A DNA stretch of 64,000 bases from Alcaligenes faecalis (GTDB lineage Bacteria > Pseudomonadota > Gammaproteobacteria > Burkholderiales > Burkholderiaceae_B). This document shows, in pieces, positions 6,064-50,950 of this stretch (its first letter is position 1; the number at the start of each line of letters is the position of its first letter). A model generated the notes under the pieces. It saw nothing but the letters and a program-made list of their open reading frames with translations. It made no database searches and was not told the origin of the DNA. Position numbers and translations under genes: made by a program. The stretch is from positions 558,001 through 622,000 of the forward strand of contig NZ_CP031747.1 of assembly GCF_005311025.1 (NCBI RefSeq). The letters run 5' to 3'.

Positions 6064-6130
6064 GACCAAGACCTAAGCCACTGCCAGGGAAACGTCTCTG
6101 GCAGTACGCTGGTCAAGCCAGTCAAGACTC

Positions 6131-6170
6131 AACACCCCGACATGGAGCTTCCATGTCGGGGTGTTGTCGT
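6131..6170 (+). terminator. Rho-independent terminator of ppsA
   Basis: Perfect 16-bp stem (6131-6146 with 6150-6165) closed by a 3-base loop and followed by a T-rich tail, 68 bases after the ppsA stop. Confidence 0.88.
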
Positions 6171-6553
6171 TTTCGGGCGCATCTTTTGCCTGCGCTTCTG
6201 TTCTTGCTCTTGCCCGTGCTCAGGCGATTTCGTTTTGTGGTTCTTTTAGCCTGATAGTGCGTCTATGTTGCCGTATTGGCAGGCTGGAGTCGGTGTGCGA
6301 GCTTGTACAGGTATCGCCGAGTGCTCGTGGTGTAGGACAGGGAGAAGCACAGGTTCAATCCTGACGACCGGCACCGATCAGGGGCAGGGCGCTGGTGAAA
6401 GGTAGTGATGGGGAAAAGGGAATCGCCGTCACCGCCCTGGATCGGGCGGCATGGATTCAGATTGTCTTGAAAGGTTCGCTGTCAGCTGTAGAGCATAAAA
6501 GCCGGGAACCGTAGGGAGATGGCAATCAGTGGTTGCCGCCGATTGATACAGCC
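6171..6553. other. Intergenic region without recognisable gene
   Basis: About 380 bases between the ppsA terminator and the end of the TetR gene. Short open frames exist on both strands but none has a ribosome binding site or a recognisable protein. No repeat or RNA gene seen. Confidence 0.5.
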
Positions 6554-27868: not shown

Positions 27869-28003
27869 GATTCTTGCTTCAGGATGGATCTGGGCCAAGA
27901 GCGGTCATAGAACAAGAACTATAAGCACCGCATTAATGGAAAAGCTCCCCAGACATGATTGATGCCTGAAGAGCCTTTCATGGGGGAGACTGTTAAGGGA
28001 ATT

Positions 28004-28018
28004 GCCTGAGTTTCAGGC
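28004..28018 (-). terminator. Weak hairpin after the toxin operon
   Basis: GCCTGA (28004-28009) / TCAGGC (28013-28018), 3-base loop, immediately after the stop of the MACPF gene on the minus strand. Short and without a good T-run. Confidence 0.35.
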
Positions 28019-28022
28019 CAAG

Positions 28023-30134
28023 TTATCCAAATATACTGTTGATTTTCTCAACGGTTCCGATATAGGTAGTGCTTATTTTTCTCAGAGTGTAGGGAACGGT
28101 ATAAGTCCAATCCTTAGACCAGGAATCGCTGCTTAAGGTGCAAATGTTGAGATTGCCCAATTCTTTTTCCAAGGCGGCAAATTGATCTTGTAGAGATTGG
28201 CTTGACGCAAGACTCCGGCCCTGGCCTTGACCCCGCCATTGAACTCCCTTGGCGGCAGAGTATGGAATAGGTATCAACCTGACACTGTCGTTAGTCAGAA
28301 TCCCTTTGTCTTTATCAGCCGTTAGCTTCATTGCCATTTCGCCGCCTTTAGTGAAAATCATTTTTTCAGGCAAGGCTTTTCGCAATAGCATCAGGGACGG
28401 CCCGAAGGCATAAATATCACCATTCGTATCAATGAATGGGAGCATTTTTATGAACGAGCTAAACGCAGTCGGATTGTTGCTCCCATAGCTGCAATAAGCA
28501 GCCTTGTAGGTCACCTCGGGATACGGTATCGGCTTAACGTCGATAATTTCACTGCTTACTGACTGGTCCCCAATGAGCAGGCCCAGACCAAGCTCCGCAT
28601 TACGCAAGAAACCAATTTCGTTCCAGGCAGTATAAATCTTCTTGGCTTCATCGCTTAAGGAGTTGAATGCGATTTCCACCGCATCGTCACTCTCTACGTT
28701 GTCGCTCAATACACCCTGTGCAATTTTGAACGAATCGGCTACTTGAGACGCTGAATTAAGATGGCAGAAATCCAGCTTGATATTGCAAGCGTTAAAGGTA
28801 TTGTAAATAGTGTTCAAGGTGGACAAATCTTGCATCATGCAACGAATTTTCAGGATGTACTCGGCCACTTCAGCATCGTTGATTTCGTTCATGTATCCCA
28901 TCGACATCCATGGGAAAATATCTGACCAGTTTGCTATCCAGGCGCCTAGAACGGCGTAGTCTGAGCTTGAATCCAAACTGCTTGCTCTGACCCCTTGAAG
29001 CGAGATGTTCTTCTTCCTTCTGGAGACGCTTCCTTCTGCTAACACGTCCAATGAGTTTTCCTGTACTTTGGAGGCCAGGTCGTTTAAGCCATCAATATTG
29101 TTCTTGTCCCGAACAGTTGATTTGAATTCTTCAAACGTTAAATTCGGGTTCGTTTTTTTGGCTTCTTCATATCCGGACGCGAGCGAGAATTCTTCAGAAT
29201 CGCCCAGTTTCTTAATGGTATCCAGCTTTTCCGTGACTTCTTCATTTTTTTCCGGTTTGAGAAAATCAGGGATTTTTGGAGGAGGGCTTACCGAACTTTG
29301 CATTGGCGCTTTATCGAGCAGGCTAATTCCTGAGATCTCGGCAAAGGATTTGTTGGCAACAACATCAAACCAGGAATTTACCTGGCTTTCAACGCAACCT
29401 CCACTGGCGAGAGCCTTGCACGATACCTCAACTTCAGAGCTTTGATCTTTTTGAGATCCATTATAGGTTTGCGCTATGGATACGGAACTTCCTATCCCTG
29501 AATAGCTGAATTCAGCCGTTTCTCCATACTTCCAGCTGTCTTCTGATTTTTTGCTCGTCATCTCCGTAGAAACAGAGCCCATTCCACCCCAGATGGCTCC
29601 AACGACCAGGCCATCCCCGTAGGATGAAATGAAGTTCTGCAGAGATTTGACCCATTCTTTCATGAGCTCGTCTTTTTCTGTAGACGATCCAGTGCAGTCA
29701 CGGGCAGCAATAAATTTCTCTAAAACCTTTAACGAAAGATTTTTAGGTCCTGCGCTTAAGGAATTTAATACGTCTTCTACCGTCAGGTTGTCAAAGTCTA
29801 TGTATTCTATTCCCGAGATCATGGAAATGTTGTAGGAAACTTTAATGGACTTGTACTCCGAAGCAGTCGCATTGCTGACGGATACAGCAACTGCTGACGT
29901 AAACTTGGCGATCCCCGAGGGGCCATAGGCTCCTGAAAAGCCAATGGTTCCCTCGTTCAAGGAGTCAGTATAGACATATTGGCTTTTACCACTCATACCC
30001 ATTTCAATTTCTTTTTGGGTAATCATTCTGGTAATTGGATTTATCAGAACTGAAGGTTTGAAATCATTCCCAAGAACAGTAGATCCAACTGTGATTCCCA
30101 GTAATGGGTTGATGGATTTAGCTTCTATGCCCAT
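28023..30134 (-). CDS. MACPF-type pore-forming toxin subunit (AfIP-1B-like)
   Basis: 703 residues (~77 kDa). A MACPF-like signature SSYGDGLVVGAIWGG is at about residues 170-184, flanked by the long serine-rich strands expected of membrane-inserting hairpins (TSAVAVSVSNATASEYKSIK; SVSTEMTSKKSEDSWKYGE). The partner gene 11 bases upstream encodes an aegerolysin, and the two sizes match AfIP-1B (77 kDa) and AfIP-1A (16 kDa), the two-part Alcaligenes insecticidal protein active on western corn rootworm. It has no obvious signal peptide, as in fungal pleurotolysin B relatives with other export routes. Clear Shine-Dalgarno (AAGGAAG). The gene is much more A/T-rich than the core genome, indicating acquisition. 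Confidence 0.87.
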   Translation of the reverse strand: MGIEAKSINPLLGITVGSTVLGNDFKPSVLINPITRMITQKEIEMGMSGKSQYVYTDSLNEGTIGFSGAYGPSGIAKFTSAVAVSVSNATASEYKSIKVSYNISMISGIEYIDFDNLTVEDVLNSLSAGPKNLSLKVLEKFIAARDCTGSSTEKDELMKEWVKSLQNFISSYGDGLVVGAIWGGMGSVSTEMTSKKSEDSWKYGETAEFSYSGIGSSVSIAQTYNGSQKDQSSEVEVSCKALASGGCVESQVNSWFDVVANKSFAEISGISLLDKAPMQSSVSPPPKIPDFLKPEKNEEVTEKLDTIKKLGDSEEFSLASGYEEAKKTNPNLTFEEFKSTVRDKNNIDGLNDLASKVQENSLDVLAEGSVSRRKKNISLQGVRASSLDSSSDYAVLGAWIANWSDIFPWMSMGYMNEINDAEVAEYILKIRCMMQDLSTLNTIYNTFNACNIKLDFCHLNSASQVADSFKIAQGVLSDNVESDDAVEIAFNSLSDEAKKIYTAWNEIGFLRNAELGLGLLIGDQSVSSEIIDVKPIPYPEVTYKAAYCSYGSNNPTAFSSFIKMLPFIDTNGDIYAFGPSLMLLRKALPEKMIFTKGGEMAMKLTADKDKGILTNDSVRLIPIPYSAAKGVQWRGQGQGRSLASSQSLQDQFAALEKELGNLNICTLSSDSWSKDWTYTVPYTLRKISTTYIGTVEKINSIFG

Positions 30135-30145
30135 GATTTTCTTCC

Positions 30146-30586
30146 TTAGGATTTTTTTACGACAGTAATGAAGATATTGCCTGTTGCGCCACTTGGGCTA
30201 CCGCCACCTTTTTTACTCACTGTGTAGTTTTCTTTATCCTTTACGGTGAGTTCATCGCTGTTGGACCCACTCCAGGGGCAATCCCAGTAATATTCGAAAA
30301 CTAATTTATCACCATCGTATAAAGAAAAGCCTCCTTCCGTTCCAGATGAAGCATTTTCACGTCCGCAAGAGGCAATGGTGTATGAGTCTTCGTCTTTAAT
30401 AATGGTGCCATTGATTTGGCTAGGACTTATTTCCTTATCCTTATTTCCAGGGACATGAAACTTTCCCCACTTCAGATAAGCGCCTTCTACTTTGAAGTTT
30501 GAGTTAACAACGAAGATGGTAATTTCTATCCATTGTGCATAAGCCCGAACCTTGCTTTCTTCAGTTGCAATATCTTTAGCAGTCAT
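30146..30586 (-). CDS. Aegerolysin, membrane-binding toxin subunit (AfIP-1A-like)
   Basis: 146-residue aegerolysin (~16 kDa). Family hallmarks are RAYAQW (14-19), ASCGRENASSGTEG (72-85) and YYWDCPWSG (99-107). Aegerolysins such as ostreolysin A bind sphingolipid-rich membranes and recruit a MACPF partner that forms the pore; here that partner is encoded directly downstream. First gene of the operon, start ATG at 30586 with GAGGA upstream. No signal peptide. A/T-rich like the MACPF gene. The insecticidal role is known for the Alcaligenes homologues; for this strain it is inferred. Confidence 0.9.
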   Translation of the reverse strand: MTAKDIATEESKVRAYAQWIEITIFVVNSNFKVEGAYLKWGKFHVPGNKDKEISPSQINGTIIKDEDSYTIASCGRENASSGTEGGFSLYDGDKLVFEYYWDCPWSGSNSDELTVKDKENYTVSKKGGGSPSGATGNIFITVVKKS

Positions 30587-30633
30587 GGTTAAGTCCTCAG
30601 CTTGTTAATTAAGTTGCGCCTAACTACATTGTT

Positions 30634-30684
30634 TTGCACTTATGTGCAAGCAGAGAATAGCAGTTGAATTGTTTTAATACAATT
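30634..30684 (-). promoter_or_regulatory. Promoter and operator-like repeats of the toxin operon
   Basis: On the minus strand TTGTAT (30682-30677) and TATTCT (30659-30654) are separated by 17 bases, a fair sigma-70 promoter about 70 bases before the aegerolysin start. One inverted repeat (AATTGT/ACAATT, 30667-30684) covers the -35 box and a second (TTGCAC/GTGCAA, 30634-30649) covers the expected start site, positions suited to regulator binding. Assigned by eye. Confidence 0.45.
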
Positions 30685-30814
30685 TAATTTAAATAAAAAA
30701 ATAGCTGCTTTTCTATCTCCTTTATTATTCGCAACCTAACTTAAATTAATATCGTAATTACGATGTTTTTATATGAATGAAGTGTCTGAATTTTTCTTGA
30801 TTAGTACGAAAACT

Positions 30815-30905
30815 GTTTTCTGCCCCTTCAGTCATGGCGTTGGCCCAATGCAGGTTCGACCTGGTGGAATGGGACAACGTAGTGAAGAGCACGTCACGCA
30901 TTGGT
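30815..30905 (+). pseudogene. Remnant of the recombinase-like gene
   Basis: Roughly 90 bases recognisably similar to 26795-26887 of the intact recombinase-like gene (for example CTTCAG..AT.G..GTGGCCCAA.GCAGG, and later GAGCAC..CACGCA.TGG.GCGAT). No intact frame. It runs almost directly into a GNAT remnant, with the 3' part of the recombinase gene missing. Confidence 0.65.
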
Positions 30906-30917
30906 GCGATCGGACCA

Positions 30918-31290
30918 AGCAGCTGAGCAAGCCATCGTAGCCATGCTGGCCGACGATAATCTGGGCGAGAAGCTGGTGAACATCGGCCTGCTTTTGGCCC
31001 AGTCCTCTCTGGAAGCCTTTGCGGCGATAGAGGTAACCACAATCAGTATCTGACGGTTGTTGAGCTTGATGGTGCGGTGGCAGATGCTTTGCAGATCACG
31101 TATATGCCAGATTTGTCGCACCCGGAGGAGTGGAGTGGAGAGATTGAGTCTGTGCATATGGCTAGCGCAGCTCGTAGTAGGGGATTGGCCCGTTTGATAA
31201 TTCAGTGGACTATCGAACAATGCCGTGTGCGCGCAAGTGCCACCTTGTGCAGCTAAGCTCGGATACGGCTCGTATCAATGCCAAGCTGGC
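30918..31290 (+). pseudogene. Frameshifted partial copy of the GNAT gene
   Basis: Collinear with 27447-27820 of the intact acetyltransferase gene; identical runs include GCAGATCACGTATATGCCAG and GAGATTGAGTCTGT. It has no start codon, a one-base deletion near 31032, a two-base insertion near 31232, an in-frame stop (TGACGG at about 31051), and no 3' end. Not functional. Together with the recombinase remnant it forms a decayed duplicate of the pair at 26209-27868. Confidence 0.85.
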
Positions 31291-31546
31291 TATTTCTTTG
31301 GTCAATTTGCCGTCCTTCAAACTCAAAGGGCATTTGCCGATAGGCAACCCTGTACTGAATCCGGCGCTTGGAATCACAAACTCGAATACTTTCATGAAGA
31401 CTAGACCGGCTTTGCCCCTGGCATCTTGCAGCATAAAGGTCGGGATTACCTCGTCCTTTATGCTGTCTGGAAAAATGGACAGCTAGCCCTGAGCTTGGTT
31501 TTTAGCCTTATGATGTTTTCTCAAACTGTATGTTGGAGATAGGCAG
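31291..31546. other. Spacer between GNAT remnant and SDR gene
   Basis: About 255 bases. A short minus-strand frame (e.g. MKVFEFVIPSAGFSTGLPIG) reads protein-like and may be another gene fragment, but I do not recognise it. The promoter and ribosome binding site (GGAGA) of the SDR gene are at its end. Confidence 0.35.
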
Positions 31547-32308
31547 ATGGGTGTAGCGTCAAATTATCCAGTCATATTGATTACCGGCGGGAGTCGAGGG
31601 ATAGGTGCTGCGACGGCGCGTCTGGCGGCGAAGCAGGGCTATAACGTTGTTCTTAGCTATGTCGCCAGTGAATCTGATGCCTTGTCAGTGGTCGCTGAAG
31701 TAGAGGCGACAGGTCGTCAAGCTGTTGCTTTCAAGGCGGATTGCGCGGACCCGGAGCAGATTACTCAACTCTTTGAGCAGGTTGACCAAAGGTTTGGGCG
31801 GATTGATGTTTTGGTAAATAACGCAGGCGTGTTGTTTCAGCAGTCTCGTCTGGAAGATCTCAGCTTCGAGCGTATACAACACACTTTTGCGGTCAACACG
31901 ATTGGTCCCATGCTTTGTGCGCAACAGGCGGCCAAACGCATGGCTTATCGCCATGGTGGGAAAGGCGGTTCTGTCATCAATGTTTCCTCTATAGCGGCCA
32001 AGCTTGGCAGTCCAAACGAATATGTGGATTACGCCGCTTCGAAAGGAGCTGTGGAGACTTTCACAACAGGTTTTGCTAAAGAGGTTGCCCGAGAAGGGAT
32101 TCGTGTTAATTGTGTTCGGCCTGGGCATATTTATACCGAGATGCATGCCAGTGGCGGCGAGCCAGACCGTGTAGACCGATTAAAGGACAGCATCCCGATG
32201 GGCCGTGGTGGCCAAGCAGAGGAAGTGGCGCGTGCAATTTTATGGCTAGCCAGCTCTGAGGCGTCCTTTATCACGGGAACATTCCTGGATGCGAGCGGTG
32301 GCAAGTAG
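31547..32308 (+). CDS. Short-chain dehydrogenase/reductase
   Basis: 253-residue classical SDR. NADP(H)-binding motif TGGSRGIGAATARLA (13-27), NNAGVL near 90, catalytic Ser in NVSSIAAKLG and Y-x-x-x-K in DYAASKGAVE near 160. Similar proteins are annotated as glucose-1-dehydrogenase or 3-oxoacyl reductase homologues; the substrate cannot be told. Last gene before the conjugative-element block. Confidence 0.9.
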   Translation: MGVASNYPVILITGGSRGIGAATARLAAKQGYNVVLSYVASESDALSVVAEVEATGRQAVAFKADCADPEQITQLFEQVDQRFGRIDVLVNNAGVLFQQSRLEDLSFERIQHTFAVNTIGPMLCAQQAAKRMAYRHGGKGGSVINVSSIAAKLGSPNEYVDYAASKGAVETFTTGFAKEVAREGIRVNCVRPGHIYTEMHASGGEPDRVDRLKDSIPMGRGGQAEEVARAILWLASSEASFITGTFLDASGGK

Positions 32309-32467: not shown

Positions 32468-33412
32468 ATGCTTACGTTCACAACTGTCGCCACTAAAGGT
32501 GGTGTTGGCAAAACTACATTAACTGCTAATTTAGGTGGATTGCTTGCTGATTTCGGATATCGCGTTCTTTTAATTGATGCGGATATTCAGCCATCCCTGA
32601 CTCGCTATTACAAACTGACTCATCAAGCCCCTTACGGCTTAACGCAAATGGTGATGTCGGGAGCACTCACCACGGACTGCATTAGTCACGTCGAATTTCC
32701 TCCAGCCGAATTCGAGGGTGACCGTTCAAGTTTGAACGTGCAGGGCGGCTTCTTGCATATTGTGTGCTCTGACACTCAGCGAGATGACAGCCCCCTTCAA
32801 ATCTGGTTGTCCAATCAGCTTGATCGCCTGGTGCGTATTCGGATGGCCCTGAGTAACCCGGATATCCGTGCTCAGTACGATGTCTGCATCATCGATACCC
32901 AAGGGGCAGTGGGCCACTTACAAGACGCCGCCGTCAATGCTGCGGATGTGCTTCTCGCTCCTGTAGCCCCTGATGTTCTGTCGGCCCGTGAGTTTGTTGA
33001 CGGTACGATCAAACTGGTCGCCCGCCACGAATCTGCCTCCAACCTGGGCTACAAAGTGCCCGCAATCCAGTGCGTGATTAACCGTAGCGAGAACACGGTC
33101 GACAGTCGCACCATGTCCAGCCTAATCCGCAATCAGTTCATTGAAATGAGCGGGCGTGTGACCGTGCTGGCCACCCAGATTCCCCAAGCGGTCGCCTACA
33201 AAAAAGCCGCTACCGCCCAAGTCCCTGCTCACTGGATTGATCCGGTCAGAGCGGGCGATCACATGCACAGTTTGCTGTGGGAATTGATCCCCAATCTGAG
33301 CAATAAATTCACTCCCAATCACCGCAATGAGTTAGCTCCCGCGCTAGCGGCATTGCATGTCCCTATCTCCGCGTCAGACGAGCCAGACAGCCCGCTCACG
33401 ACTAACTCGTAG
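32468..33412 (+). CDS. parA: ParA-family partition ATPase
   Basis: 314-residue Walker-type ATPase. Deviant Walker A KGGVGKTTLTANLGG (residues 10-24), Walker A' VLLIDADIQPSL, and DVCIIDTQGAVGHLQDAAVNA. It segregates or stabilises the circular form of the element with the ParB encoded 8 bases downstream. The sequence type and the following gene order are those of PFGI-1/SPI-7-class integrative conjugative elements, where parA (soj) is needed to keep the excised element. Confidence 0.93.
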   Translation: MLTFTTVATKGGVGKTTLTANLGGLLADFGYRVLLIDADIQPSLTRYYKLTHQAPYGLTQMVMSGALTTDCISHVEFPPAEFEGDRSSLNVQGGFLHIVCSDTQRDDSPLQIWLSNQLDRLVRIRMALSNPDIRAQYDVCIIDTQGAVGHLQDAAVNAADVLLAPVAPDVLSAREFVDGTIKLVARHESASNLGYKVPAIQCVINRSENTVDSRTMSSLIRNQFIEMSGRVTVLATQIPQAVAYKKAATAQVPAHWIDPVRAGDHMHSLLWELIPNLSNKFTPNHRNELAPALAALHVPISASDEPDSPLTTNS

Positions 33413-33420
33413 AGCGCGCC

Positions 33421-35160
33421 ATGTCTAAAACTCCGGAATTGCTGACCGCCAGTCAGCGTGCCGCGCAGTTGCGCATGAACGCTGAGTTGAGCTCAACACT
33501 AAGAGATACCAGTCCCGTGTCCTCAAAAAAATCGAATTACGAAGACATCGCCAAACGTTCCCTGATGGGCACGCCGCCACCGCTGAACGCCATGGGTGCG
33601 ATGACGCCCATGGATGTGGTCGATGGCAGTATTTCAAATTTGGCAGTCACTGATATTGATCGGTACGAATTTGACCCGCGTACCGAAATAAACCCACTCT
33701 ATGACGAGATCAAGGCGTCGATTCGGGCCAACGGCATCCTGAACCATATCAGCGTTACCAGGCGTCCTGGTCAGCTGCGTTATATGGTCTACGGTGGCGG
33801 GAATACACGGCTGCGTATTGCGAAAGAGCTGTACGAAGAGGGTGACCAACGCTTTGCGCGGCTGACGGTCATCGTCAAGGTCTGGAAAGGGGACGCGCCG
33901 ACCATTGCGGCGCACCTGGCTGAAAACGAGCAGCGTGGCGAGATTTCGTTCTGGGAGAAAGCTCAGGGCGTGCTGTCGTTTAAGGAGCATTTCGAGAAAG
34001 AATCGGGCAAATCGCTTTCAACCACGGAACTGAACAGGGAGTTGCGCCAGGCCAGCGGCCTGAATTTCGGCATGAGCATGCTGCAAAACTTCCTTTTTGC
34101 GGTTGAGTATCTGACCCCGATCGGGCGCTGGCTACAAACACGCGATGTGAACCTGCTATTGAAACCGCAGATCTCGCAGTGGCTAAAACTAGCTGACAAG
34201 TTTAGCCAGCAAGCAGTCGCTGAAACAGCGCTACAGACAATCCTGCACAAGTACGCCGCTGTGATGAGCCAACAATCTGTCACGGCAGATCAAAGTGCTC
34301 AGCAGGTTTTAGACGTCTCGCAGTTGCTTGATGAGGTCAACGCAGCCATCGCTGACACCTTGGGTGTAGCCCCTGAGAAACTGCTGGCCATGGCCCAGGC
34401 TCTAGAGGCGAACCCGCGCCTGGAGGTTGAGACCCTGAGGCTGATCGAAGCCACTCCTACGGCGCCAGTGGCCTCCAAGCCGTTAGCAATTCAACCACCT
34501 ACTCAGCCTCCACTCGGTCGAATGTTGGCCAGTGTGCCTACGCCTAAGAGTAAGCCCGACAGTTCTGGCGGTGCCTTTTTGCCAGCTTCCCCATCGGTCT
34601 CCCAGAACGTGGTCTTGAGCGGAGAGGGGGAGGGTGAGGGGTTCGATCCACAGCCGATATTTACGGTGTTAGGCGAGTTTCAGAGCCTGATCGACATGTC
34701 GGATGTGCTTTTTAAAAGCGATCAGCCCTACCACATCTTTGGCTTTTACCTGGACTTTCCTTCACAAGGTATTGGGTATGTTGATGGGATTGAGCTGGAA
34801 CCAGAATTGGTCATTTACCGCAGAGCCCTGTGGAAAATCCTAGTCAGTCTTACCGGTCAGCTTGATCGTCGATTTACGCAGCTCATCCCATACGAAGCCG
34901 ATGGCTTCACCATTGCGTGGAAACAGCTTTGGGAGCAGGGCGAGGAGCAGTTTCAGGAAGGAGCGCAGGAGTTACTGGGCGAGGCATTTGACCATGTCTC
35001 GCTCCAAACCGTGAGCCTGGTACTGCGACATGAGCAATTGGGGCCGTTGGTCACACGTCTGCTCTCAGAAATGGAACGGGTTCGGATCCGTTACCCAGAG
35101 CGTCAACTGGACGGGTTTGTGCCCTTGTTCATGCCGGATGTGACGGAGGAGATTTCATGA
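33421..35160 (+). CDS. parB: ParB-family protein of PFGI-1-class elements
   Basis: 579 residues, larger than chromosomal ParB (~300). The ParB/Srx nuclease-like domain lies at about 78-200: DIDRYEFDPRTEINPLYDEI, then MVYGGGNTRLRIAKELYEEG and HLAENEQRGEISFWEKA. The C-terminal half is element-specific with a Pro/Ser-rich linker near 350-400 and no domain I recognise. TIGR03764-like. Directly follows parA and overlaps the next gene by 4 bases (ATGA). Confidence 0.88.
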   Translation: MSKTPELLTASQRAAQLRMNAELSSTLRDTSPVSSKKSNYEDIAKRSLMGTPPPLNAMGAMTPMDVVDGSISNLAVTDIDRYEFDPRTEINPLYDEIKASIRANGILNHISVTRRPGQLRYMVYGGGNTRLRIAKELYEEGDQRFARLTVIVKVWKGDAPTIAAHLAENEQRGEISFWEKAQGVLSFKEHFEKESGKSLSTTELNRELRQASGLNFGMSMLQNFLFAVEYLTPIGRWLQTRDVNLLLKPQISQWLKLADKFSQQAVAETALQTILHKYAAVMSQQSVTADQSAQQVLDVSQLLDEVNAAIADTLGVAPEKLLAMAQALEANPRLEVETLRLIEATPTAPVASKPLAIQPPTQPPLGRMLASVPTPKSKPDSSGGAFLPASPSVSQNVVLSGEGEGEGFDPQPIFTVLGEFQSLIDMSDVLFKSDQPYHIFGFYLDFPSQGIGYVDGIELEPELVIYRRALWKILVSLTGQLDRRFTQLIPYEADGFTIAWKQLWEQGEEQFQEGAQELLGEAFDHVSLQTVSLVLRHEQLGPLVTRLLSEMERVRIRYPERQLDGFVPLFMPDVTEEIS

Positions 35161-35762
35161 ACAAAATTCCCATTCAATGTCCTGTTCTACGGCGCATGTT
35201 GCTGGCCCACATTATTGAGCAAATCGATGGCGGGCACATGGACTCTCTACTGCGTGCGGGCTACTCACCCGAGTTTCTCGATGATTTGCGTTACCGAACC
35301 ACTCGGGACATCACGAATCTGGCCAACTCACCGCAGGAAATGTGGTTCTCACTGTCTGAACAGCTCATCAGCAAGGGGCTACATCTGCTCGATATGCGGC
35401 GTGAGCACGCCAAGTTACGCGAATATTTTGTGATTCATGGCGCTTCGCGTCGGATGGTGTGTACGTATTTCAAGCTGTCCCACGAGGAGTATCGGGACTT
35501 GCGCGCACAGCTCAGACCGGGAGGGGAGCCTGGCGGTCGTACAGCCCTGCCTCCAGTCGTTGTACGTGATGCCATCCATCGAGCGTGGTTCGATATTCAG
35601 CAATCGATGTCTGAGCAACCCTGCCGAGACCGAATCTACGCCTTACACCAACAGTTTCCTGAGCTGCGAATCAGTGTCCTCCAACAAACCATTGTCGAGT
35701 TTGCTGAAGATGATGAGCTTGGTTTGGAAATAAAGCCGACGACACCACCACTGCAAGGATAA
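35157..35762 (+). CDS. DUF2857-family element protein
   Basis: 201 residues: QCPVLRRMLLAHIIEQIDGG at the start, a helix-turn-helix-like stretch RRMVCTYFKLSHEEYRDLR in the middle (~95-115). DUF2857 proteins are found almost only in this position of PFGI-1/SPI-7-type elements; in Pseudomonas and Klebsiella relatives some act as FlhC-like or heterodimerising regulators, otherwise the role is unknown. Start overlaps parB (ATGA). Confidence 0.8.
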   Translation: MNKIPIQCPVLRRMLLAHIIEQIDGGHMDSLLRAGYSPEFLDDLRYRTTRDITNLANSPQEMWFSLSEQLISKGLHLLDMRREHAKLREYFVIHGASRRMVCTYFKLSHEEYRDLRAQLRPGGEPGGRTALPPVVVRDAIHRAWFDIQQSMSEQPCRDRIYALHQQFPELRISVLQQTIVEFAEDDELGLEIKPTTPPLQG

Positions 35763-35768
35763 AGCCAC

Positions 35769-36365
35769 ATGGATGAAATTATGACTATGCCAATTACTTC
35801 TACAACTGCGCCGCATCCGTCGACTCTGCCTCCGTCAGAGCGTGCTTGTGATGGCCAGACACAGGGTGGGTGGACCTTGCCGTCCTCTCATGCCGATGGC
35901 TCCCAGAACAATAAAGACGCGCCAAAGGAAGACTTTTTAGCGCAAGCGGCGCTGTTGAATTTGATGGGGCAAACGCCAATCAGCTTCCATCGCCTATATG
36001 TCGATATCACAGGCAATGTCATCACGGGATTATGGCTTTCGTCTGTGCTGGAGCGTGTTGCTCAAGCCAAACCCGAGGAGTTTCAGGATGATGATTATGT
36101 TTTTCGCCTATCAGCGACTCAATGTCATCAGGTCACCGGGATTACTGCCTCTCAGCAGCGGACATGCCGACGAGATTTGATCGCATTGGGCATGTTAAGT
36201 GAACAGTCGGGGCCAGGCCGTGTACCGGAATACCGCTTGCATCTGAATGTTGTCGCGGATGCCATTCTCCAAGCATCCGCTTCATTAGCTAACTCGCTCG
36301 AAGAGGTTCATCAACAACAAGGCTCATCGTCGTCACAACCCGTTCTTTCCAAGCGCTACGGATGA
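35769..36365 (+). CDS. Element protein with one winged-helix-like domain
   Basis: 198 residues. After a disordered N-terminus, residues ~65-165 (SFHRLYVDITGNVITGLWLS, later RLSATQCHQVTGITASQQRT) match the repeated domain of the next gene product, so the two are paralogous. The domain resembles a replication-initiator winged helix. Ends one base before the next ATG. Function unproven; probably DNA binding in element replication or control. Confidence 0.7.
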   Translation: MDEIMTMPITSTTAPHPSTLPPSERACDGQTQGGWTLPSSHADGSQNNKDAPKEDFLAQAALLNLMGQTPISFHRLYVDITGNVITGLWLSSVLERVAQAKPEEFQDDDYVFRLSATQCHQVTGITASQQRTCRRDLIALGMLSEQSGPGRVPEYRLHLNVVADAILQASASLANSLEEVHQQQGSSSSQPVLSKRYG

Positions 36366-36366
36366 G

Positions 36367-38007
36367 ATGGCTATGGGTGCCGCATTAAACACCGATACAA
36401 CGACGGCGTCTCTAATTGATGAGGCTATGCAGTTGCTCACCAGCCAAGGGTTTGTGCAGTACTACCCAAACCTGGCTCAAACGCTGGGCAATTTCAAAGC
36501 TGCTTTGTTTTTGGGGCACGCGCTCTATTGGGCTCGGCATACTGCCGTTCACTATAAAAATCGTGATGGCTGGTTCTTTCTGACGGCAAAACAGTGTACG
36601 CAAGCAACGGGATTAAGTACCCGAGAGCAGGAGAGCGCTCGTCTCTTACTTGTTCAACATTCGCTGATTCAGGAAAAGCTGGCTGGTGGACCGGCCAAGC
36701 TCCATTACCGTATCAACCTTGATCGTCTCGCTTCTTGCCTGGGGATATCGGTTGTTGATCAGAAAGCAAGCTGGGCGCAGCTCGCACCATTGCTGAAGCG
36801 CTACGTGAGCTTCTACCGGCCCTTGGCGGATATTGCAGGCAATGTGGCCTCTGGCTTGTACCTATCGTATCTGCTGATTCAGCAACGTCATGTTCTCACT
36901 TACAGCCGAAGCATCGAGGGTGAATTTACGCTGTCTCAACAGGCGATTCGTAGCGCCCTCTGCTTGACCAGCAAAACACAACGCAATGCCCGTGATCGCC
37001 TGAAACAGATGGGTTTACTCCGGGAAGCCGGCAATCGCATACGCATTAACTTGTTGGCCTTATGCCCTTTGTTGCACGGTCAGGAGCAGTACCCGCTCAA
37101 GTCTGAGTCTACCGATCAGCCCCCCATTGCTGATGCACCGAAACTGACATCGGTATCCAAACCTGTCCCTGTGAATGGGCATAAGCCTGCGCCATCACGA
37201 TCAAGCAAATTATTTGGAGTTGGCACACAGTCACAACGGCCGCTGTTTGATTTGGATAGTGCTGGCGCAGCACGGGCGAACGCAACCGTCCAGCACGCGC
37301 TGCGTGACCCTGCCAGTATGAATCCTGGACGTCTCTTTGCTCAGACCCCAGTGAGTCCCAAGGCAGCTTGTGGACAACTCACAAAAACAAGCGACCTCAC
37401 AACTTGCCCAGTTGCCCAAAACGCGAAACTTGATTCCCAAACCGCAAAACTAACTTGCCCAAACCGCGAAACTAAGCTGCCCAAACCGCGAAACAACAAT
37501 ACAACAATATCTCTTCAAACAACTACAAGACCCGCCGTCACCACGGCGTCTGCAGGGGATAAGTCCAAGGCACTGGCCGAGATAGCGGATTGTCGTCGTG
37601 ATGATTTGAATTTTCAAAACGACGAGGTTGATGTCACTTTACCCAGCGTGCTTGGCAAGCAATGGCATGAGGCTGTGCGCAAGGTGCTATCCATTGCCAA
37701 GCCAGAGCATCGTCAGAGTTTGCTTGATGAGTTGGAAGGCCAGTTGCGCAATCCAGGCAAGCACATCGCAAATCCTCCTGGCTACTTGCATTCGCTGCGT
37801 GTCGGCTTGGAATCCGGTCGTGTGCAACTGGCATATGCGCAAAGCATTGCAAGCCAGCGTGAACACAATCGACATGCTCAAGATGCCGTCCAAGAGCACA
37901 TCAAGGCTCTCAATACAAACCTGACGACAACTCTGCCTCCAATGACGAAAGAGGAGGCCTTTGCTCAGTTGCGCCAGCAGGTGCAGGCCATGAGGAAGCT
38001 GCCATGA
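36367..38007 (+). CDS. Replication-type protein of PFGI-1/SPI-7-class elements (STY4528-like)
   Basis: 546 residues. Two tandem winged-helix-like domains: residues ~25-120 (YYPNLAQTLGNFKAALFLGH, then FFLTAKQCTQATGLSTREQE) and ~145-235 (FYRPLADIAGNVASGLYLSY, then FTLSQQAIRSALCLTSKTQR). A Gln/Thr/Pro-rich linker near 250-420 contains imperfect repeats (NAKLDSQTAKLTCPNRETKL), and a C-terminal region ~430-546 is helical. The position between parB and ssb and the domain type fit the 'pathogenicity island replication protein' group. Its stop overlaps the start of the repeat ORF by ATGA. Confidence 0.72.
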   Translation: MAMGAALNTDTTTASLIDEAMQLLTSQGFVQYYPNLAQTLGNFKAALFLGHALYWARHTAVHYKNRDGWFFLTAKQCTQATGLSTREQESARLLLVQHSLIQEKLAGGPAKLHYRINLDRLASCLGISVVDQKASWAQLAPLLKRYVSFYRPLADIAGNVASGLYLSYLLIQQRHVLTYSRSIEGEFTLSQQAIRSALCLTSKTQRNARDRLKQMGLLREAGNRIRINLLALCPLLHGQEQYPLKSESTDQPPIADAPKLTSVSKPVPVNGHKPAPSRSSKLFGVGTQSQRPLFDLDSAGAARANATVQHALRDPASMNPGRLFAQTPVSPKAACGQLTKTSDLTTCPVAQNAKLDSQTAKLTCPNRETKLPKPRNNNTTISLQTTTRPAVTTASAGDKSKALAEIADCRRDDLNFQNDEVDVTLPSVLGKQWHEAVRKVLSIAKPEHRQSLLDELEGQLRNPGKHIANPPGYLHSLRVGLESGRVQLAYAQSIASQREHNRHAQDAVQEHIKALNTNLTTTLPPMTKEEAFAQLRQQVQAMRKLP

Positions 38008-38264
38008 CCGCCAGACTCATCCGTACCCCATTCGGTAGGACATTTTGTCTTAATCCCCAACAGGTGGGAGGTAAGACATTCTGTCTCAATCCCCACCGGG
38101 TGGGAGGTAAGACGTTTTGTCTCAATGCCCAACGGTTGGGAGGTAGCCCGTTTCGGGTCACCTCCCACCGGGTGGGGAGTAGCCCGTTTGGGGCCACCGC
38201 CCAACGGTTGGGAAGTAGCCCGATTGGGGCTACTCAAGAGAACAGACTTAGGAGACCGTATTAA
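38004..38264 (+). CDS. 86-residue peptide built from 12-residue tandem repeats
   Basis: Starts with ATG overlapping the previous stop (ATGA) and ends with TAA overlapping the next start (TAATG), which is strong evidence that it is translated as part of the operon. After a 10-residue lead (MTARLIRTPF) come units of 12 residues: GRTFCLNPQQVG, GKTFCLNPHRVG, GKTFCLNAQRLG, GSPFRVTSHRVG, SSPFGATAQRLG, then a partial unit and a basic end. The first three units share FCLN, the later ones drift to FRVT/FGAT. It is basic, has one Cys in each of three units, and has no signal peptide. I know no family for it. The DNA below it may matter more than the peptide (see repeat entry). Confidence 0.6.
   Translation: MTARLIRTPFGRTFCLNPQQVGGKTFCLNPHRVGGKTFCLNAQRLGGSPFRVTSHRVGSSPFGATAQRLGSSPIGATQENRLRRPY
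38034..38240 (+). repeat. 36-bp tandem repeat array with paired inverted repeats
   Basis: Five complete 36-bp units start at 38034, 38070, 38106, 38142 and 38178, and a partial one at 38214. Each unit holds arm pair A (TAAGACA-TTC-TGTCTCA in unit 2; TAGCCCG-TTT-CGGGTCA in unit 4) and arm pair B, a 13-base palindrome alternating CCCACCGGGTGGG (units 2, 4) and CCCAACGGTTGGG (units 3, 5). The differences between units are largely compensating on both arms, so pairing is kept while sequence changes. The array sits between a replication-type gene and a small wHTH-like gene, so iteron/origin, RNA structure or protein-binding array are all possible. Confidence 0.9.
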
Positions 38265-38653
38265 TGACTAACGAACAATTGTTTATTCATCTTCTGCATA
38301 GGCTACAGAAATACAGCGATGCCCTGGTTCTTCATGTACTGCTACAAGACCACGGAGATGAGCGTCGAGTCCGGACGTCCGCTACCAAGATGGCTTTGGA
38401 CTCATTGCGAGGTCAGATTAACCGCCGTCAAGTTCAACGTGCCTTCGAGCGGTTGGAATCCATGGGGCTTATTAACGTGATGCCTCAGCCCAATTACCGC
38501 ACCTTGGTCACAGTCAACAGTGACGCCTTGTTGGAATTTCTCAATCAAGACCCTTTGAGCGGCATGTTGCCTGGGTTCCGTGCCAATACGTTCCCGTTTC
38601 TGGATGCTGTCAACGCAACACCGCTGGCAGATTTCAAGGGGTCAACGATCTGA
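38264..38653 (+). CDS. Small helix-turn-helix-like element protein
   Basis: 129 residues; the start ATG overlaps the stop of the repeat ORF (TAATG) and has its own GGAGA upstream. The middle (TSATKMALDSLRGQINRRQV, then FERLESMGLINVMPQ) reads as a winged helix. Its neighbours suggest a role in replication or its control. Family not recognised. Confidence 0.65.
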   Translation: MTNEQLFIHLLHRLQKYSDALVLHVLLQDHGDERRVRTSATKMALDSLRGQINRRQVQRAFERLESMGLINVMPQPNYRTLVTVNSDALLEFLNQDPLSGMLPGFRANTFPFLDAVNATPLADFKGSTI

Positions 38654-38700: not shown

Positions 38701-39819
38701 ATGCCTACTTCGACTGATAAGCAGCCACGACTCAAGTCCAGCGACAAGCCCGCTACCATTCCCGCACCCAAGTCTCTTATTGAGTTCTCTACGGAGGAGA
38801 ACTCCCCCTTCACCGATGGGTATTCGATTACCGGCGAAGAAGCCTTGCTGGCCTCGTATATGGCGGGCCCGATGAGTGAAGATGATCCGCTTTATGAGCG
38901 GTATATCGAATTGGAAGATCGTAGAGATCAATTGGCTCGTATGCAGGCCAAATTCCATACGCGCAAGGGTTCTGATCCTGACGTCAAACCAGCTGAGTTC
39001 TTCGCTATGGATGACCTGGGCTCTCTGGTCGATTCAGAAGACGATCTGATGACCCTGCATACCAAGGAGGCATTTAGGCTGTTTATGGGGCGTGTGCGTG
39101 AGCCTGGCTCAGATGTGGCCCCTATCGTAGGTGGTCGCCGTGTTGCCAGTTCGTTGCGCAGCTTATGGCTATTGACGGGCAATGACAATCCCTATGCCGA
39201 TTGGTCTTTGCTGCGTCATGAGCAATCCATGGAAGAAGTGAATGAGCGGCTGCAAGAGGAGATCAAGGCTGCCGAGACTTTGCTGTCAAGCCAGCAGCAA
39301 CGTGGGTTGAGTTATTCCGTGTTGAAGTCTGCTCAACCGCAGTCTTTGCAGCTGGGATTCCGATCCCCCTACGGATACAGCATCAGCCGCTTGATTGTTG
39401 ATTATGACTACTTCATCCGTTTGCAGAAAACACTGGGTCGCAAGACGCTCTTAAGCGATCAGCAAATGCGCCGCTCGATCACAGAAATGACTCGCTTTAT
39501 CCGTCGCGTATTCAATGAGGTCGCCAGGTTTTCACGTTGGCTCATGCAGCCAGACATCAATGCACTGTCCCGACTGGACTTCATTACGGAGCATGCTTCA
39601 GAAGAGGGCAAGCGGCGGGTGGAATTCGTGCGCGAAGTATTCGGCATGGTGCCTGCCGATGTGTTCACCGCCAAGCTGCAACCACGTCACTCTCGACGCC
39701 GGTACACATTAACTGAGAAGGAAAGGAGCCTGTTGCAGTCAGTAGGTGTGCAACTGGCTGAAGCTGAAGCACAGCGCGAAGCCGACGAGTTTCAGGATGC
39801 CAATTCGGGTTTGGTGTGA
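38701..39819 (+). CDS. Integrating conjugative element protein, PFL_4669 family (TIGR03761)
   Basis: 372 residues. Typical core at about 115-300: HTKEAFRLFMGRVREPGSDV, SLRSLWLLTGNDNPYADWSL, PYGYSISRLIVDYDYFIRLQ. This family is confined to PFGI-1/SPI-7-class elements and always lies near ssb; its biochemical role is unknown. It supports classing the whole 32.4-40.8 kb block with those elements. Confidence 0.82.
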   Translation: MPTSTDKQPRLKSSDKPATIPAPKSLIEFSTEENSPFTDGYSITGEEALLASYMAGPMSEDDPLYERYIELEDRRDQLARMQAKFHTRKGSDPDVKPAEFFAMDDLGSLVDSEDDLMTLHTKEAFRLFMGRVREPGSDVAPIVGGRRVASSLRSLWLLTGNDNPYADWSLLRHEQSMEEVNERLQEEIKAAETLLSSQQQRGLSYSVLKSAQPQSLQLGFRSPYGYSISRLIVDYDYFIRLQKTLGRKTLLSDQQMRRSITEMTRFIRRVFNEVARFSRWLMQPDINALSRLDFITEHASEEGKRRVEFVREVFGMVPADVFTAKLQPRHSRRRYTLTEKERSLLQSVGVQLAEAEAQREADEFQDANSGLV

Positions 39820-40901: not shown

Positions 40902-42371
40902 GTGCTGCCGTTGAATATTGTCCCAATCTCGCTTAAGGCCCCTGAGTTACTTATTCAAGCTGTTTTTGATGGGCGCAGGCTTGGGCTACAACTGTTCAAT
41001 ATTTCAGGAATGGCCGCCCGGTTGTCTAAAGCTGGGGCATGGTGGTGTCCTGGACGGCGGATGTGGGTATTGGAGCAGGGCAGTGCTGACCATGCCTTAG
41101 CTTGGTTGCAGGCGCACTATCTGCGTGAGCATGTTGATTTTGACGGGGCTGCTGTGCTATTAAAGGCGGCTATAAGGGCCCCCGAGCCTGATTACTTTAC
41201 CCAACTGCTCGACGTCCAAATTTTTGAGCTGGCCAGAGGCGAGCTCAACCATGGCCAACATGCCGTCAGCTTTTCTTACGATGGGCTGTGCGTGCGTGCC
41301 ATGCGTGCGCTACAGGGGAGATTTCATAAGCCCGCTGCGGCGTGGCAAGTACGCGGTGAAGTGGCGCACATCCAGCACGTGCTCCGTGACCTGGCAGGCG
41401 TGGCGCCTGAGTATACGTTCGTGCATGAGCAGCCCGTCGTACTCGAAGAACTGGTTTCATCAAGCGCGGATGAATCGCCCATCCAGGTACCTGCTGCGAC
41501 TCCTGAGCAAGGGGAAAGCGGCCCCGCCCAAGATGTGGATGGAGCGGGTTTTTTGTCTGCCGACCTGGAGCAAAGCAACGCGGTCGACATCGATGAAGCA
41601 GTGCTGGCTGCGATCGCTGTGGGCGCAGGTTTACGGGAGTATCAAGTCGATGGCGTCCGTCACCTAGCAGGTCAGACAGGAGCGTGCTTGGGCGACGATA
41701 TGGGCTTGGGTAAGACACGGCAGACTGTTGTAGGTGCTCGTCTAGCTGCGGGGCAGGGTAGAGTGCTTATAGTCTGTCCCGCCTCTTTGCGTATCAACTG
41801 GGAACGCGAGATCCACGCAGTGTATCCCGATGCTGTAGTCGGCTTTGCCGGGGATGATCGGATCTCAACCTTGTACGGTTGTCAGTGGGTCATTGCGAAT
41901 TACGAACGATTGGGTGGCCTGGTGCGCGAGGTCGAGCTTGAGTTTGGGGCCATGGCTATTGATGAAGCGCATTATCTTAAGGAGCATAAATCCGGGCGTA
42001 CGCGCAATGCTTTTGTGATGGCCACGCGTATTCCGAAACGCTATGTGGTAACCGGTACACCTCTTCTGAATCGTGAAATTGAGCTGCACACGCTCTTGCG
42101 ACTTACCGGCCACCCGCTTGGCCGTATGGAACTGAAAGAGTTCCGCAAAGAGTTCACCGGCTCCCGTGATCGTCGAGCGGCCTTAGCCCGCGCCTTGGGC
42201 GGGTGGATGCTACGCAGGCGTAAGGATGTACTCGACCTGGGCGCCAAGACCCATTCAGTCCGTTACATCTCGCCTAGTGAAGGCCTGGCGGCCTATAAGG
42301 AGATCTACGATGATATGAGCCTGATGGCCATGCCCAAAATCACTAAGCTGCGCCTGAACATTGATTGGTAA
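40902..42371 (+). CDS. SNF2-type helicase, truncated before the second helicase domain
   Basis: 489 residues from a GTG at 40902 (start uncertain). Residues ~245-420 are a SNF2/HARP-like ATPase domain: REYQVDGVRHL, Walker A GDDMGLGKTRQTV, motif Ia VCPASLRINWERE, DEAH box AIDEAHYLKEH, motif III VTGTPLLNRE. The protein stops shortly after KDVLDLGAKTHSVRY, so the C-terminal helicase domain (motifs IV-VI) is missing. Intact relatives (SMARCAL1-like) need it for translocation. The cut coincides with the end of the element block and the beginning of unrelated DNA, so this is likely a deletion or insertion junction. Confidence 0.75.
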   Translation: MLPLNIVPISLKAPELLIQAVFDGRRLGLQLFNISGMAARLSKAGAWWCPGRRMWVLEQGSADHALAWLQAHYLREHVDFDGAAVLLKAAIRAPEPDYFTQLLDVQIFELARGELNHGQHAVSFSYDGLCVRAMRALQGRFHKPAAAWQVRGEVAHIQHVLRDLAGVAPEYTFVHEQPVVLEELVSSSADESPIQVPAATPEQGESGPAQDVDGAGFLSADLEQSNAVDIDEAVLAAIAVGAGLREYQVDGVRHLAGQTGACLGDDMGLGKTRQTVVGARLAAGQGRVLIVCPASLRINWEREIHAVYPDAVVGFAGDDRISTLYGCQWVIANYERLGGLVREVELEFGAMAIDEAHYLKEHKSGRTRNAFVMATRIPKRYVVTGTPLLNREIELHTLLRLTGHPLGRMELKEFRKEFTGSRDRRAALARALGGWMLRRRKDVLDLGAKTHSVRYISPSEGLAAYKEIYDDMSLMAMPKITKLRLNIDW

Positions 42372-46647: not shown

Positions 46648-47148
46648 TTATATGGCACCTTGCTCAGCCAGTGACACGCACCCTTCAGTCGCTACAACGA
46701 TGTGATCGAGCACCTTTACATCGACCAGTGCCAAGGCGTCTCTCAGCGTCTTGGTGAGGGCGACGTCAGCAATGCTTGGAGTGGGATCGCCTGACGGATG
46801 GTTATGAGCCATGATGAGCGCGGCTGCGTTGTGCTGCAAAGCCAGTTTGACGACTTCCCGCGGGTAAACGCTGGCCGTACTGATAGTGCCCCGGAACAAC
46901 TCATGAAACCCGATGATCCTGAACCTGGAATCGAGCAGAAGTACCGCGAAGACTTCATGCTGATAGTCGTGCATGAGCTCGCGAACGTGGTCTTTGACGA
47001 CGTGTGGTGCCGTCAACGACCGGCCTTTGCTTAACCGTTTGCGAGAGAGCTGTTTGGCCATCGTCAGTATGTCGTCTTCCGTGACAAGGGCAGACTCCAT
47101 GAGGTAGCTGCCCGGCTCTGAGCTTGCTTTCAGTTTGTGATACCGCAT
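46648..47148 (-). CDS. radC: RadC-family JAMM-domain protein
   Basis: 166 residues, the JAB/MPN(+) domain only: the metal motif is AHNHPSGDPTPS (H-x-H...D) with the upstream glutamate in VFAVLLLDSRFRIIGFHELF. It lacks the N-terminal helix-hairpin-helix of chromosomal RadC, as in most element-borne copies. The family's function is still unsettled; it is regularly linked with mobile DNA and recombination genes, as here. Confidence 0.9.
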   Translation of the reverse strand: MRYHKLKASSEPGSYLMESALVTEDDILTMAKQLSRKRLSKGRSLTAPHVVKDHVRELMHDYQHEVFAVLLLDSRFRIIGFHELFRGTISTASVYPREVVKLALQHNAAALIMAHNHPSGDPTPSIADVALTKTLRDALALVDVKVLDHIVVATEGCVSLAEQGAI

Positions 47149-47241
47149 GCTGTGTCCTTCACAACGAAAAGGCCGCCTCGAAGGACGGACAGATGAAGAT
47201 AATGGGATGGGGTGTAGATAGTTTGCTTCTGCGCCAATGCG

Positions 47242-50887: not shown

Positions 50888-50950
50888 CGTGGCATACGAC
50901 CCAAAACGCGCCGATGCTAATGGTGTACCTTGTCTGGCGCAGGAATGAAC

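What the first reader, a model, noticed from the sequence alone, without database searches (positions are those of the whole stretch)
38004..38264. Translated 36-bp tandem repeat array with covarying palindromes inside a conjugative-element replication operon
Seen directly: five full units and one partial unit of exactly 36 bp, each with two inverted repeats. Between units both arms change together (GAC/GTC core in units 1-3 to CCC/GGG in units 4-6; CCCACCGGGTGGG alternating with CCCAACGGTTGGG), so pairing is conserved more than sequence. The array is also an 86-codon ORF coupled to the genes on both sides (ATGA and TAATG), and because 36 is divisible by 3 it stays open in further frames on the minus strand. 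Possible readings: origin iterons bound by the adjacent wHTH proteins, a structured RNA, or a repeat peptide. I know no description of this element.
Basis: partly seen in the sequence, partly recalled or inferred. Interest (0 to 1): 0.85.

Follow-up and report, generated by a model that had tools for sequence, protein, structure and literature searches.

The report
Palindrome array, possible ICE centromere
Beside the replication gene of a mobile DNA element lies a row of small mirror-image DNA sites that most likely serves as the handle by which the element's own partition protein holds and sorts its copies, rather than coding for a repeat peptide or a folded RNA.

Summary
The array is real: six 19-bp A palindromes alternate with five 13-bp B palindromes at 18-bp spacing (38035-38233), between a phage-O-like initiator gene and a winged-helix gene of a PFGI-1/SPI-7-type element. 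Many relatives carry palindromes in the same gap with unrelated arms; some have none. The palindromes look like double-stranded dyads: complementarity runs through the centre, coding-strand G-U pairs are not favoured, and third codon positions vary no more than their mirror bases. Read-through is kept in 13 of 15 elements but its frame is not. The likelier origin is a set of 22-bp repeats inside the initiator gene. In five close Thiobacillus-type elements the palindrome switches together with the DNA-binding centre of ParB and with little else over 6.6 kb; a relative of the window shows a weaker echo. I read B sites as ParB (centromere) sites and A sites as operators of the winged-helix protein. 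Against: distance tests in the window's clade favour the initiator, not ParB, for B. Similar repeats in PFGI-1 were described in 2009 as part of a putative oriV (PMC2647930), so this is a new variant of a known, untested kind.

The parts
38035..38233 (.). Palindrome array: six A sites (19 bp: 38035-38053, 38071-38089, 38107-38125, 38143-38161, 38179-38197, 38215-38233) alternating with five B sites (13 bp: 38056-38068, 38092-38104, 38128-38140, 38164-38176, 38200-38212); candidate centromere (B) interleaved with operators (A)
38004..38264 (+). 86-aa open frame through the array; read here as a passage frame, not a selected peptide
   Evidence: frame differs among relatives; no wobble signal
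33421..35160 (+). ParB (TIGR03764, above cut-off); proposed binder of B sites; its centre (about 34068-34617) is strongly diverged in G054/L035
32468..33412 (+). ParA-type ATPase
35157..35762 (+). DUF2857 protein
35769..36365 (+). 198-aa protein (x198) similar to part of the initiator
36367..38007 (+). Replication initiator (Init): N-terminal match to PHROG 'replication initiation O-like'; model with two winged-helix-like domains, a disordered linker (240-420) and a helical C-terminal part
37412..37494 (+). 22-bp direct repeats (3.8 copies) in the lowest-GC part of Init: probable oriV iterons, encoding part of the disordered linker
38264..38653 (+). 129-aa winged-helix protein; proposed binder of A sites
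38701..39819 (+). PFL_4669 / AcaB family protein

Best explanation
The array is a cis-acting cluster of double-stranded dyad sites. Shown by computation: dyad symmetry through the centre (B), a shared place among relatives, element-private sequence in the genomes checked, and co-switching with the ParB centre in one set of five elements. Inferred: B sites are parS-like sites on which the element's ParB dimer nucleates, so that the array with ParA and ParB acts as a sopC-like centromere that keeps the excised, replicating element in dividing cells; A sites, nearly confined to the lineage that has the winged-helix gene, are operators of that protein just upstream of its own gene. The array sits inside a closely packed gene string, so it is kept open in some reading frame (36 is a multiple of 3) and ribosomes leaving Init can pass to the next gene; which frame, and so which peptide, does not matter. 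Replication itself most likely starts at the 22-bp repeats inside Init.
For: (1) Place: in up to 350 bp upstream of AcaB in 109 loci, 31 of 62 distinct hairpins are complementary through the dyad, against 2 of 24, 2 of 22 and 2 of 25 in three control stretches. (2) B pairs at offset 1, which was not used to choose rows: 28 of 31 complementary, four pair types, highest of 2000 shuffles 20. (3) Private clusters: in 18 genomes searched with their own palindrome (up to 1 mismatch in 16 of them, none in two) it occurs 2-7 times per genome, in tight clusters (G1033: two clusters on two contigs); seven copies within 4.2 kb in G930, at least two of them inside long reading frames of Init and AcaB. (4) Co-switch in five close elements (two with GATGG, three with GTTGG palindromes): columns fixed between the groups are 47 of 785 in the ParB centre and 14 of 156 in the Init-AcaB gap, but 3 of 1364, 13 of 2794 and 8 of 1111 elsewhere; fixed protein differences ParB 23 (4 of them one insertion, 5 clustered at residues 194-204), ParA 0, DUF2857 1, x198 2, Init 1, AcaB 1 apart from a start-extension artefact of 35. 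(5) G054/L035 against the window: DNA identity 0.61-0.75 in the ParB centre and 0.75 at the array, 0.83-0.98 elsewhere. (6) A sites by a strict motif in 12 of 18 loci scored as having the winged-helix gene and 3 of 91 scored without; G059/L036, whose winged-helix N-terminal half is diverged (0.72), has no CCC-type A site. (7) Read-through in 13 of 15 against 2.9 expected.
Against: In the window's clade Mantel tests do not single out ParB: B distance correlates with Init 0.41, AcaB 0.32, ParB HTH block 0.30, winged helix 0.28 (n=14) and with the ParB N- and C-terminal parts 0.40 and 0.36 (n=15); the partial correlation is 0.38 (p 0.0008) for Init and -0.03 for the ParB HTH block. The five-element switch is one evolutionary event. 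In L035 one of two B sites equals the first B of L036 although ParB differs; x198 (0.83) and the Init 3' end (0.87) also dip there. The winged-helix lineage is one clade, so its tie to A sites may be plain descent. The array lies 2.9 kb from parB, not beside it. In Paraburkholderia one palindrome copy lies inside Init, which also suits an origin role. Change of A arms within one array is odd for one binding protein. Only 22 of 108 loci exceed all 20 shuffles in hairpin number. No binding or stability data exist.
Confidence: 0.5

Rival explanations
1. The palindromes are replication-control sites of the initiator (second half of oriV, or an incA/incC-like locus behind the rep gene): Init or its dimer binds them and titrates or pairs origins.
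For: The same place in PFGI-1 was read as half of a putative oriV; B distance correlates best with Init in the window clade (r 0.41; partial 0.38, p 0.0008); Paraburkholderia palindromes also occur once inside Init; in the window, L035, L056 and L058 the in-gene repeat segment is the part of Init most like the A sites.
Against: Init shows 1 group-fixed residue in the five-element palindrome switch where ParB shows 23. The likeness of A sites to the in-gene repeats beats every other Init segment in only 4 of 15 elements, that of B sites in 0 of 15.
Confidence: 0.25
2. The whole array is a set of transcriptional operators: the winged-helix protein, AcaB or another regulator binds it and controls the downstream genes.
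For: Position upstream of the winged-helix and AcaB genes; A sites track the winged-helix gene (12 of 18 against 3 of 91; Mantel 0.35, p 0.0002, partial 0.31, p 0.011, n=14).
Against: Five or six tandem copies in some elements, copies inside long reading frames in G930; AcaB does not change with the palindromes. Probably true for A, less for B.
Confidence: 0.15
3. A hairpin array acting as RNA in the operon transcript or as single-stranded DNA during transfer.
For: Symmetric change of arms within one element (A arms GAC to CCC in the window); palindromes can fold on either strand; A sites do have a non-complementary centre that could be a loop.
Against: In B, complementarity continues into the would-be loop; among mismatches in A offsets 3-7 and B offsets 1-6, G.T number 6 against A.C 23 (summed), so no wobble preference on the coding strand; no Rfam match at gathering scores in the window. 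The A.C excess lies mostly at one A position and would be G.U on the minus strand, so an antisense hairpin is not strictly excluded.
Confidence: 0.07
4. A repeat peptide of 12-residue units is the selected product.
For: An array-spanning frame starting at the Init stop is kept in 13 of 15 elements; nine of the 13 share one phase.
Against: The frames fall in three phases; a one-base difference shifts it between the window and G059; no excess variation at codon third positions over palindrome mirror positions; units of 57, 58 and 59 bp in relatives.
Confidence: 0.03

Closest known systems
Putative oriV repeats of PFGI-1 in Pseudomonas fluorescens Pf-5 (PMC2647930, section 10 read)
   Same: [quoted passage not shown] a further set of 23-bp repeats in the same putative origin
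   Different: There 46-bp units with one 21-bp inverted repeat; here compound 36-bp units with two palindromes, followed by a winged-helix gene. Its authors saw no Rep; here the upstream gene is an O-like initiator. Function predicted only, in both
sopC centromere of plasmid F (recalled)
   Same: Tandem array of units each with an inverted repeat, partner of ParA/ParB-type proteins
   Different: 43-bp units right after sopB; here 2.9 kb from parB and inside a read-through frame; ParB binding untested
parS sites of IncC plasmids (PMC10954446, passages read)
   Same: ParB-bound inverted repeats in several copies, some inside ORFs, as with the G930 palindromes here
   Different: Scattered through the backbone with one conserved core; here clustered at Init-AcaB and private to each element
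incA of P1 / incC of F (recalled)
   Same: Repeat array directly behind the initiator gene
   Different: Those are copies of the iterons; here the array is not generally like the in-gene repeats
Lambda-type origin inside gene O (recalled)
   Same: Direct repeats and low-GC DNA within the initiator gene
   Different: This describes the in-gene repeats at 37412-37494, not the array itself

Membership tests
ParABS centromere (parS/sopC type) | Cluster of inverted-repeat (dyad) sites | tested here: met
ParABS centromere (parS/sopC type) | Cognate parA and parB on the same element | tested here: met
   ParA 32468-33412, ParB 33421-35160
ParABS centromere (parS/sopC type) | Site specificity changes with the ParB DNA-binding part | tested here: inconclusive
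   Met in five close elements, suggestive in G054, not singled out by Mantel tests in the window clade
ParABS centromere (parS/sopC type) | Bound by ParB; stabilises a replicon in cis | not testable with these tools
   needs EMSA/ChIP and a stability assay
Iteron origin (oriV) | Direct 18-24-bp repeats next to AT-rich DNA | tested here: not met
   The array has 36-bp compound palindromic units; the feature is met instead by 37412-37494 inside Init
Iteron origin (oriV) | DnaA boxes and autonomous replication | not tested
   boxes not scanned; replication needs an experiment
PFGI-1-type putative oriV repeats | Repeats with an inverted repeat between the replication-protein gene and PFL_4669 | tested here: met
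   The link of Init to the STY4528 family rests on homologues (L191 113 bits, L184 19 bits, cut-off 130); the window Init itself has no NCBIfam match at 0.001
Structured RNA family | Conserved stems with loops, G-U tolerated, known family | tested here: not met
Protein-coding repeat | Conserved frame and selection on the peptide | tested here: not met
CRISPR array | Repeats separated by unique spacers | tested here: not met
   units abut head to tail

The most novel reading that the evidence does not exclude
PFGI-1/SPI-7-type conjugative elements each carry a private, fast-changing ParB-centromere pair: the DNA-binding centre of ParB and a palindrome cluster behind the initiator gene are inherited as a linked pair across 2.8 kb of otherwise unlinked genes, which would set compatibility between elements; in the window's lineage the centromere is fused with the operators of a second protein into one 36-bp unit that ribosomes read through.
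Probability: 0.35. Interest if true: 0.78.

Novelty: new variant of a known kind. Interest (0 to 1): 0.6.

Why it matters
Elements of the pKLC102/SPI-7/PFGI-1 group are widespread in Proteobacteria (recalled; here TIGR03761 was found in 30 of 369 class genomes), carry parA and parB, and some replicate when excised (passages). In the search listings and passages I saw no centromere of theirs is named and the origin is only postulated. If the reading holds, it names the centromere, its partner protein and the likely origin, and gives a direct test of why some of these elements can live together in a cell and others cannot. It also shows how covarying palindromes can look like RNA structure or a repeat peptide, and how to tell these apart.

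Tried and rejected
Repeat peptide: a shared-looking motif (V-x-Q/R-N-x-P) appears in one phase in many relatives, but it follows from the A-site consensus, and the mirror-position test shows no coding signal. RNA structure: dropped for lack of wobble preference on the coding strand and for complementarity through the centre; I therefore built no covariance model. Init operators that share the iteron sequence: the likeness seen by eye in the window holds against all other Init segments in 4 of 15 elements for A and 0 of 15 for B. Viral contigs: two scans found no relative. Plasmid collection: no DNA match; Init matches in 20 records, one over at least 80% of its length. Structure search: neither the winged-helix model (best E 0.0092) nor the Init model matched a solved structure at E 0.001 or better; Init has no sequence match among solved structures at 0.1.

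Rows left out. Clade tables: L059 (near copy of L058), L065 (no clear A series) and L078 not used; one irregular L056 unit dropped; 18 of 53 B rows failed a palindrome filter on offsets 2-7, so only B offset 1 is free of that choice. Mantel tests: L067 also left out because its ParB hit proved to be another protein; the ParB frames of L055 and L066 hold a stop and were read to the stop; 108 of 109 loci scored (L110 too short), 134 hairpins against 41.8 in shuffles and 55 in AcaB; 72 of 108 have at least one, 22 exceed all 20 shuffles. L057 stands among the 91 although it has the winged-helix gene; L055 was likewise missed, and L067 has a winged-helix-like reading frame by eye; 35 of 36 AcaB differences come from a longer reading frame through the array and were set aside; another grouping (L184+L187) has 34 fixed columns in the parA/parB 5' stretch, so single stretches can group by chance or exchange. 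One search kept 80 of 99 relatives; the A pattern gives 6 forward hits in the own genome, 4 in the array, and its reversed control 5, so outside the array it is at chance. One search aligned two loci on the wrong strand and was not used.

Full report
Setting. The window lies in an unnamed 4.2-Mb genome of one contig. The finding sits in a gene string ParA - ParB (TIGR03764, PFGI-1 type) - DUF2857 - 198-aa protein (x198) - 546-aa protein - array - 129-aa protein - PFL_4669/AcaB - further genes including SSB, which I take for the replication/partition end of a PFGI-1/SPI-7-type conjugative element. The 546-aa protein (Init) matches PHROG 'replication initiation O-like' at E 7e-25 over residues 30-127. 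Its model (mean pLDDT 66; block means mostly 74-94 in residues 11-240 and 79-91 in 431-510) shows two winged-helix-like domains (10-124, 136-236), a low-confidence stretch 240-420 and a helical C-terminal part. The 129-aa protein is modelled as a winged helix (mean pLDDT 81.5).

Observation. The array is as described, with A sites of 19 bp and B sites of 13 bp whose centres are 18 bp apart, so that the unit is 36 bp. In the 64-kb window A- and B-type sites occur nowhere else at the mismatch levels used. In the whole genome a degenerate A pattern has 6 forward hits, 4 of them in the array; the pattern read backwards has 5.

Relatives. A protein search of 268 family genomes found the 129-aa protein in 3, all of one genus: the window, G054 (L003/L035) and G059 (L004/L036). 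All three have the array, with 6, 3 and 4 A sites, so unit number varies. A scan with an AcaB alignment gave 99 relatives, 80 kept. Sixteen elements with the order Init - gap - winged helix - AcaB (window, L035, L036, L055-L058, L060-L064, L066-L069; Init of L055 lies off its contig and the L067 winged helix was seen by eye) carry A-like sites 36 bp apart in runs, with breaks in L056 and L067, and with arms that differ between and often within elements. Relatives scored without the winged-helix gene have other units in the same gap: 36 bp (L039/L104), 48 bp (L071), 57-59 bp (L079, L080, L083-L085), one or two palindromes (Paraburkholderia and others), or none that I could see. In L042 and L044 Init and AcaB overlap and there is no gap.

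Dyads, not hairpins. In 48 distinct A rows, offsets 4, 5 and 6 each show four kinds of complementary pair and more pairing than any of 2000 shuffles; in B the same holds at offset 1, which played no part in choosing rows. B is complementary at offsets 1 and 2 in 28 of 31 rows each, where a hairpin would have its loop; A is not (7 and 15 of 48), and has an AT-rich centre. Over 109 loci, 31 of 62 distinct hairpins in the 350 bp before AcaB are complementary through the centre, against 2 of 24, 2 of 22 and 2 of 25 in control stretches. The rows are related by descent, so these are not independent events. G.T pairs, which an RNA on the coding strand would tolerate, number 6 against 23 A.C in A offsets 3-7 and B offsets 1-6 (summed).

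Coding. A frame that starts at the Init stop and spans the A sites exists in 13 of 15 elements against 2.9 expected from shuffled gaps (L055 could not be tested). Its phase relative to the palindromes is 0 in nine, 1 in two and 2 in two; between the window and G059 a one-base difference shifts it. In L067 and L069 the frame runs on into the next gene's stretch. Codon third positions vary no more than the positions that mirror them in the palindrome, whether or not the element uses that frame (mean entropy difference 0.04 and 0.02 in users, 0.08 and 0.03 in the others). So passage of ribosomes seems kept, the peptide not.

Origin. In 10 of 16 Init genes of the clade TRF reports repeats of 22-24 bp at gene position 1044-1207, and in 15 of 16 the lowest-GC 100 bp begins at 1011-1171. 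In the window this is 37412-37494, which encodes residues about 349-376 of the disordered linker. By analogy with the lambda origin inside gene O (recalled) this is the better candidate for oriV.

Which protein. In 18 genomes searched with their own palindrome it occurs 2-7 times, clustered: 2-3 copies in eight Paraburkholderia-type genomes of 7-10 Mb, one of them 0.8-0.9 kb upstream inside Init; 2-6 in five genomes of the Thiobacillus type; 3-5 in three others (in G1033 on two contigs); 2 and 7 in G737 and G930, the seven within 4.2 kb. In G930 at least two copies lie inside the long reading frames of Init and AcaB. Five close elements (records labelled Thiobacillus in three cases, Proteobacteria and Gammaproteobacteria in two) fall into two palindrome types: GATGG in L184 (=L079) and L186 (=L084), GTTGG in L185 (=L083), L187 (=L086) and L188 (=L090). 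Along 6.6 kb, columns fixed between the two groups are 47 of 785 in the ParB centre and 14 of 156 in the gap, but 3 of 1364 before, 13 of 2794 between and 8 of 1111 in AcaB. Other 2-versus-3 groupings give at most 5 in the ParB centre and 2 in the gap, though one gives 34 in the parA/parB 5' stretch. Five of the 23 ParB differences lie at 194-204, at the start of the helix-turn-helix block as I place it by eye in the alignment; Jalal et al. 2020 (PMC7383237, passages) place ParB specificity in that motif and the helix next to it. In the window's genus, L035 differs from the window mainly in the ParB centre (0.61-0.75) and the array (0.75); x198 (0.83) and the 3' end of Init (0.87) dip less. 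L036 has a diverged winged-helix N-terminal half (0.72) and only GAC-type A sites. A strict A motif occurs in 12 of 18 loci scored with the winged-helix gene and 3 of 91 scored without.

Against this: Mantel tests over 14-15 elements of the clade give B correlations of 0.41 (Init), 0.40 and 0.36 (ParB N- and C-terminal parts), 0.32 (AcaB), 0.30 (ParB HTH block) and 0.28 (winged helix); the partial test favours Init (0.38, p 0.0008) and gives the ParB HTH block nothing (-0.03). For A the winged-helix protein comes first (0.35, p 0.0002; partial 0.31, p 0.011). Many such tests were run on shared ancestry, so I weigh them less than the two-place switch, but they are why I stop at 0.5.

Literature. 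PMC2647930 (2009; [quoted passage not shown] PMC2258188 (passages) mentions iteron-like repeats in the group. The pKLC102 paper was not held. PMC10954446 (passages) shows ParB-bound inverted repeats scattered through IncC plasmids. Searches for a centromere of this group gave none in their listings, nor did the passages of PMC6812849, PMC3739013 and PMC6945700 that I saw.

Verdict. A real feature with counterparts in many relatives, of a known but untested kind. It is most likely a DNA-site array, with B as ParB centromere sites and A as operators of the next gene's product; the initiator rival is open.

Noticed in passing
window 37412-37494: 22-bp direct repeats (3.8 copies) inside the initiator gene at its lowest-GC stretch, with counterparts in 9 of 15 further Init genes of the clade: probable oriV.
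   Followed up: yes
window 50930-54229: DISARM SNF2-like helicase DrmD (NF038317, 645 bits, cut-off 610): anti-phage defence cargo; a second SNF2-related gene lies at 40902-42371.
   Followed up: no
window 46648-48237: RadC-family and lambda-exonuclease-family genes on the minus strand.
   Followed up: no
window 28001-32000: G+C drops to about 0.45 against about 0.55 to its left; it holds a 703-aa minus-strand ORF without an NCBIfam match, perhaps cargo or the element's edge.
   Followed up: no
L039:2914-3618: 336-bp unit repeated 2.1 times just upstream of Init in the element with the identical-unit 36-bp array.
   Followed up: no
L069:3327-3992: The array frame runs in frame into the winged-helix gene, so the array would encode an N-terminal extension.
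   Followed up: partly
L049:6489-6544, and L050 read on its reverse strand near 6111-6229: Palindromes like those before AcaB recur downstream of AcaB, so the cluster is not confined to the Init-AcaB gap there.
   Followed up: partly
L077:3088-3905: An inverted pair GTGGCTCAAAATGGCAC / GTGCCATTTTGAGCCAC, like an A half-site, lies in the stretch between Init and AcaB (seen by eye).
   Followed up: no
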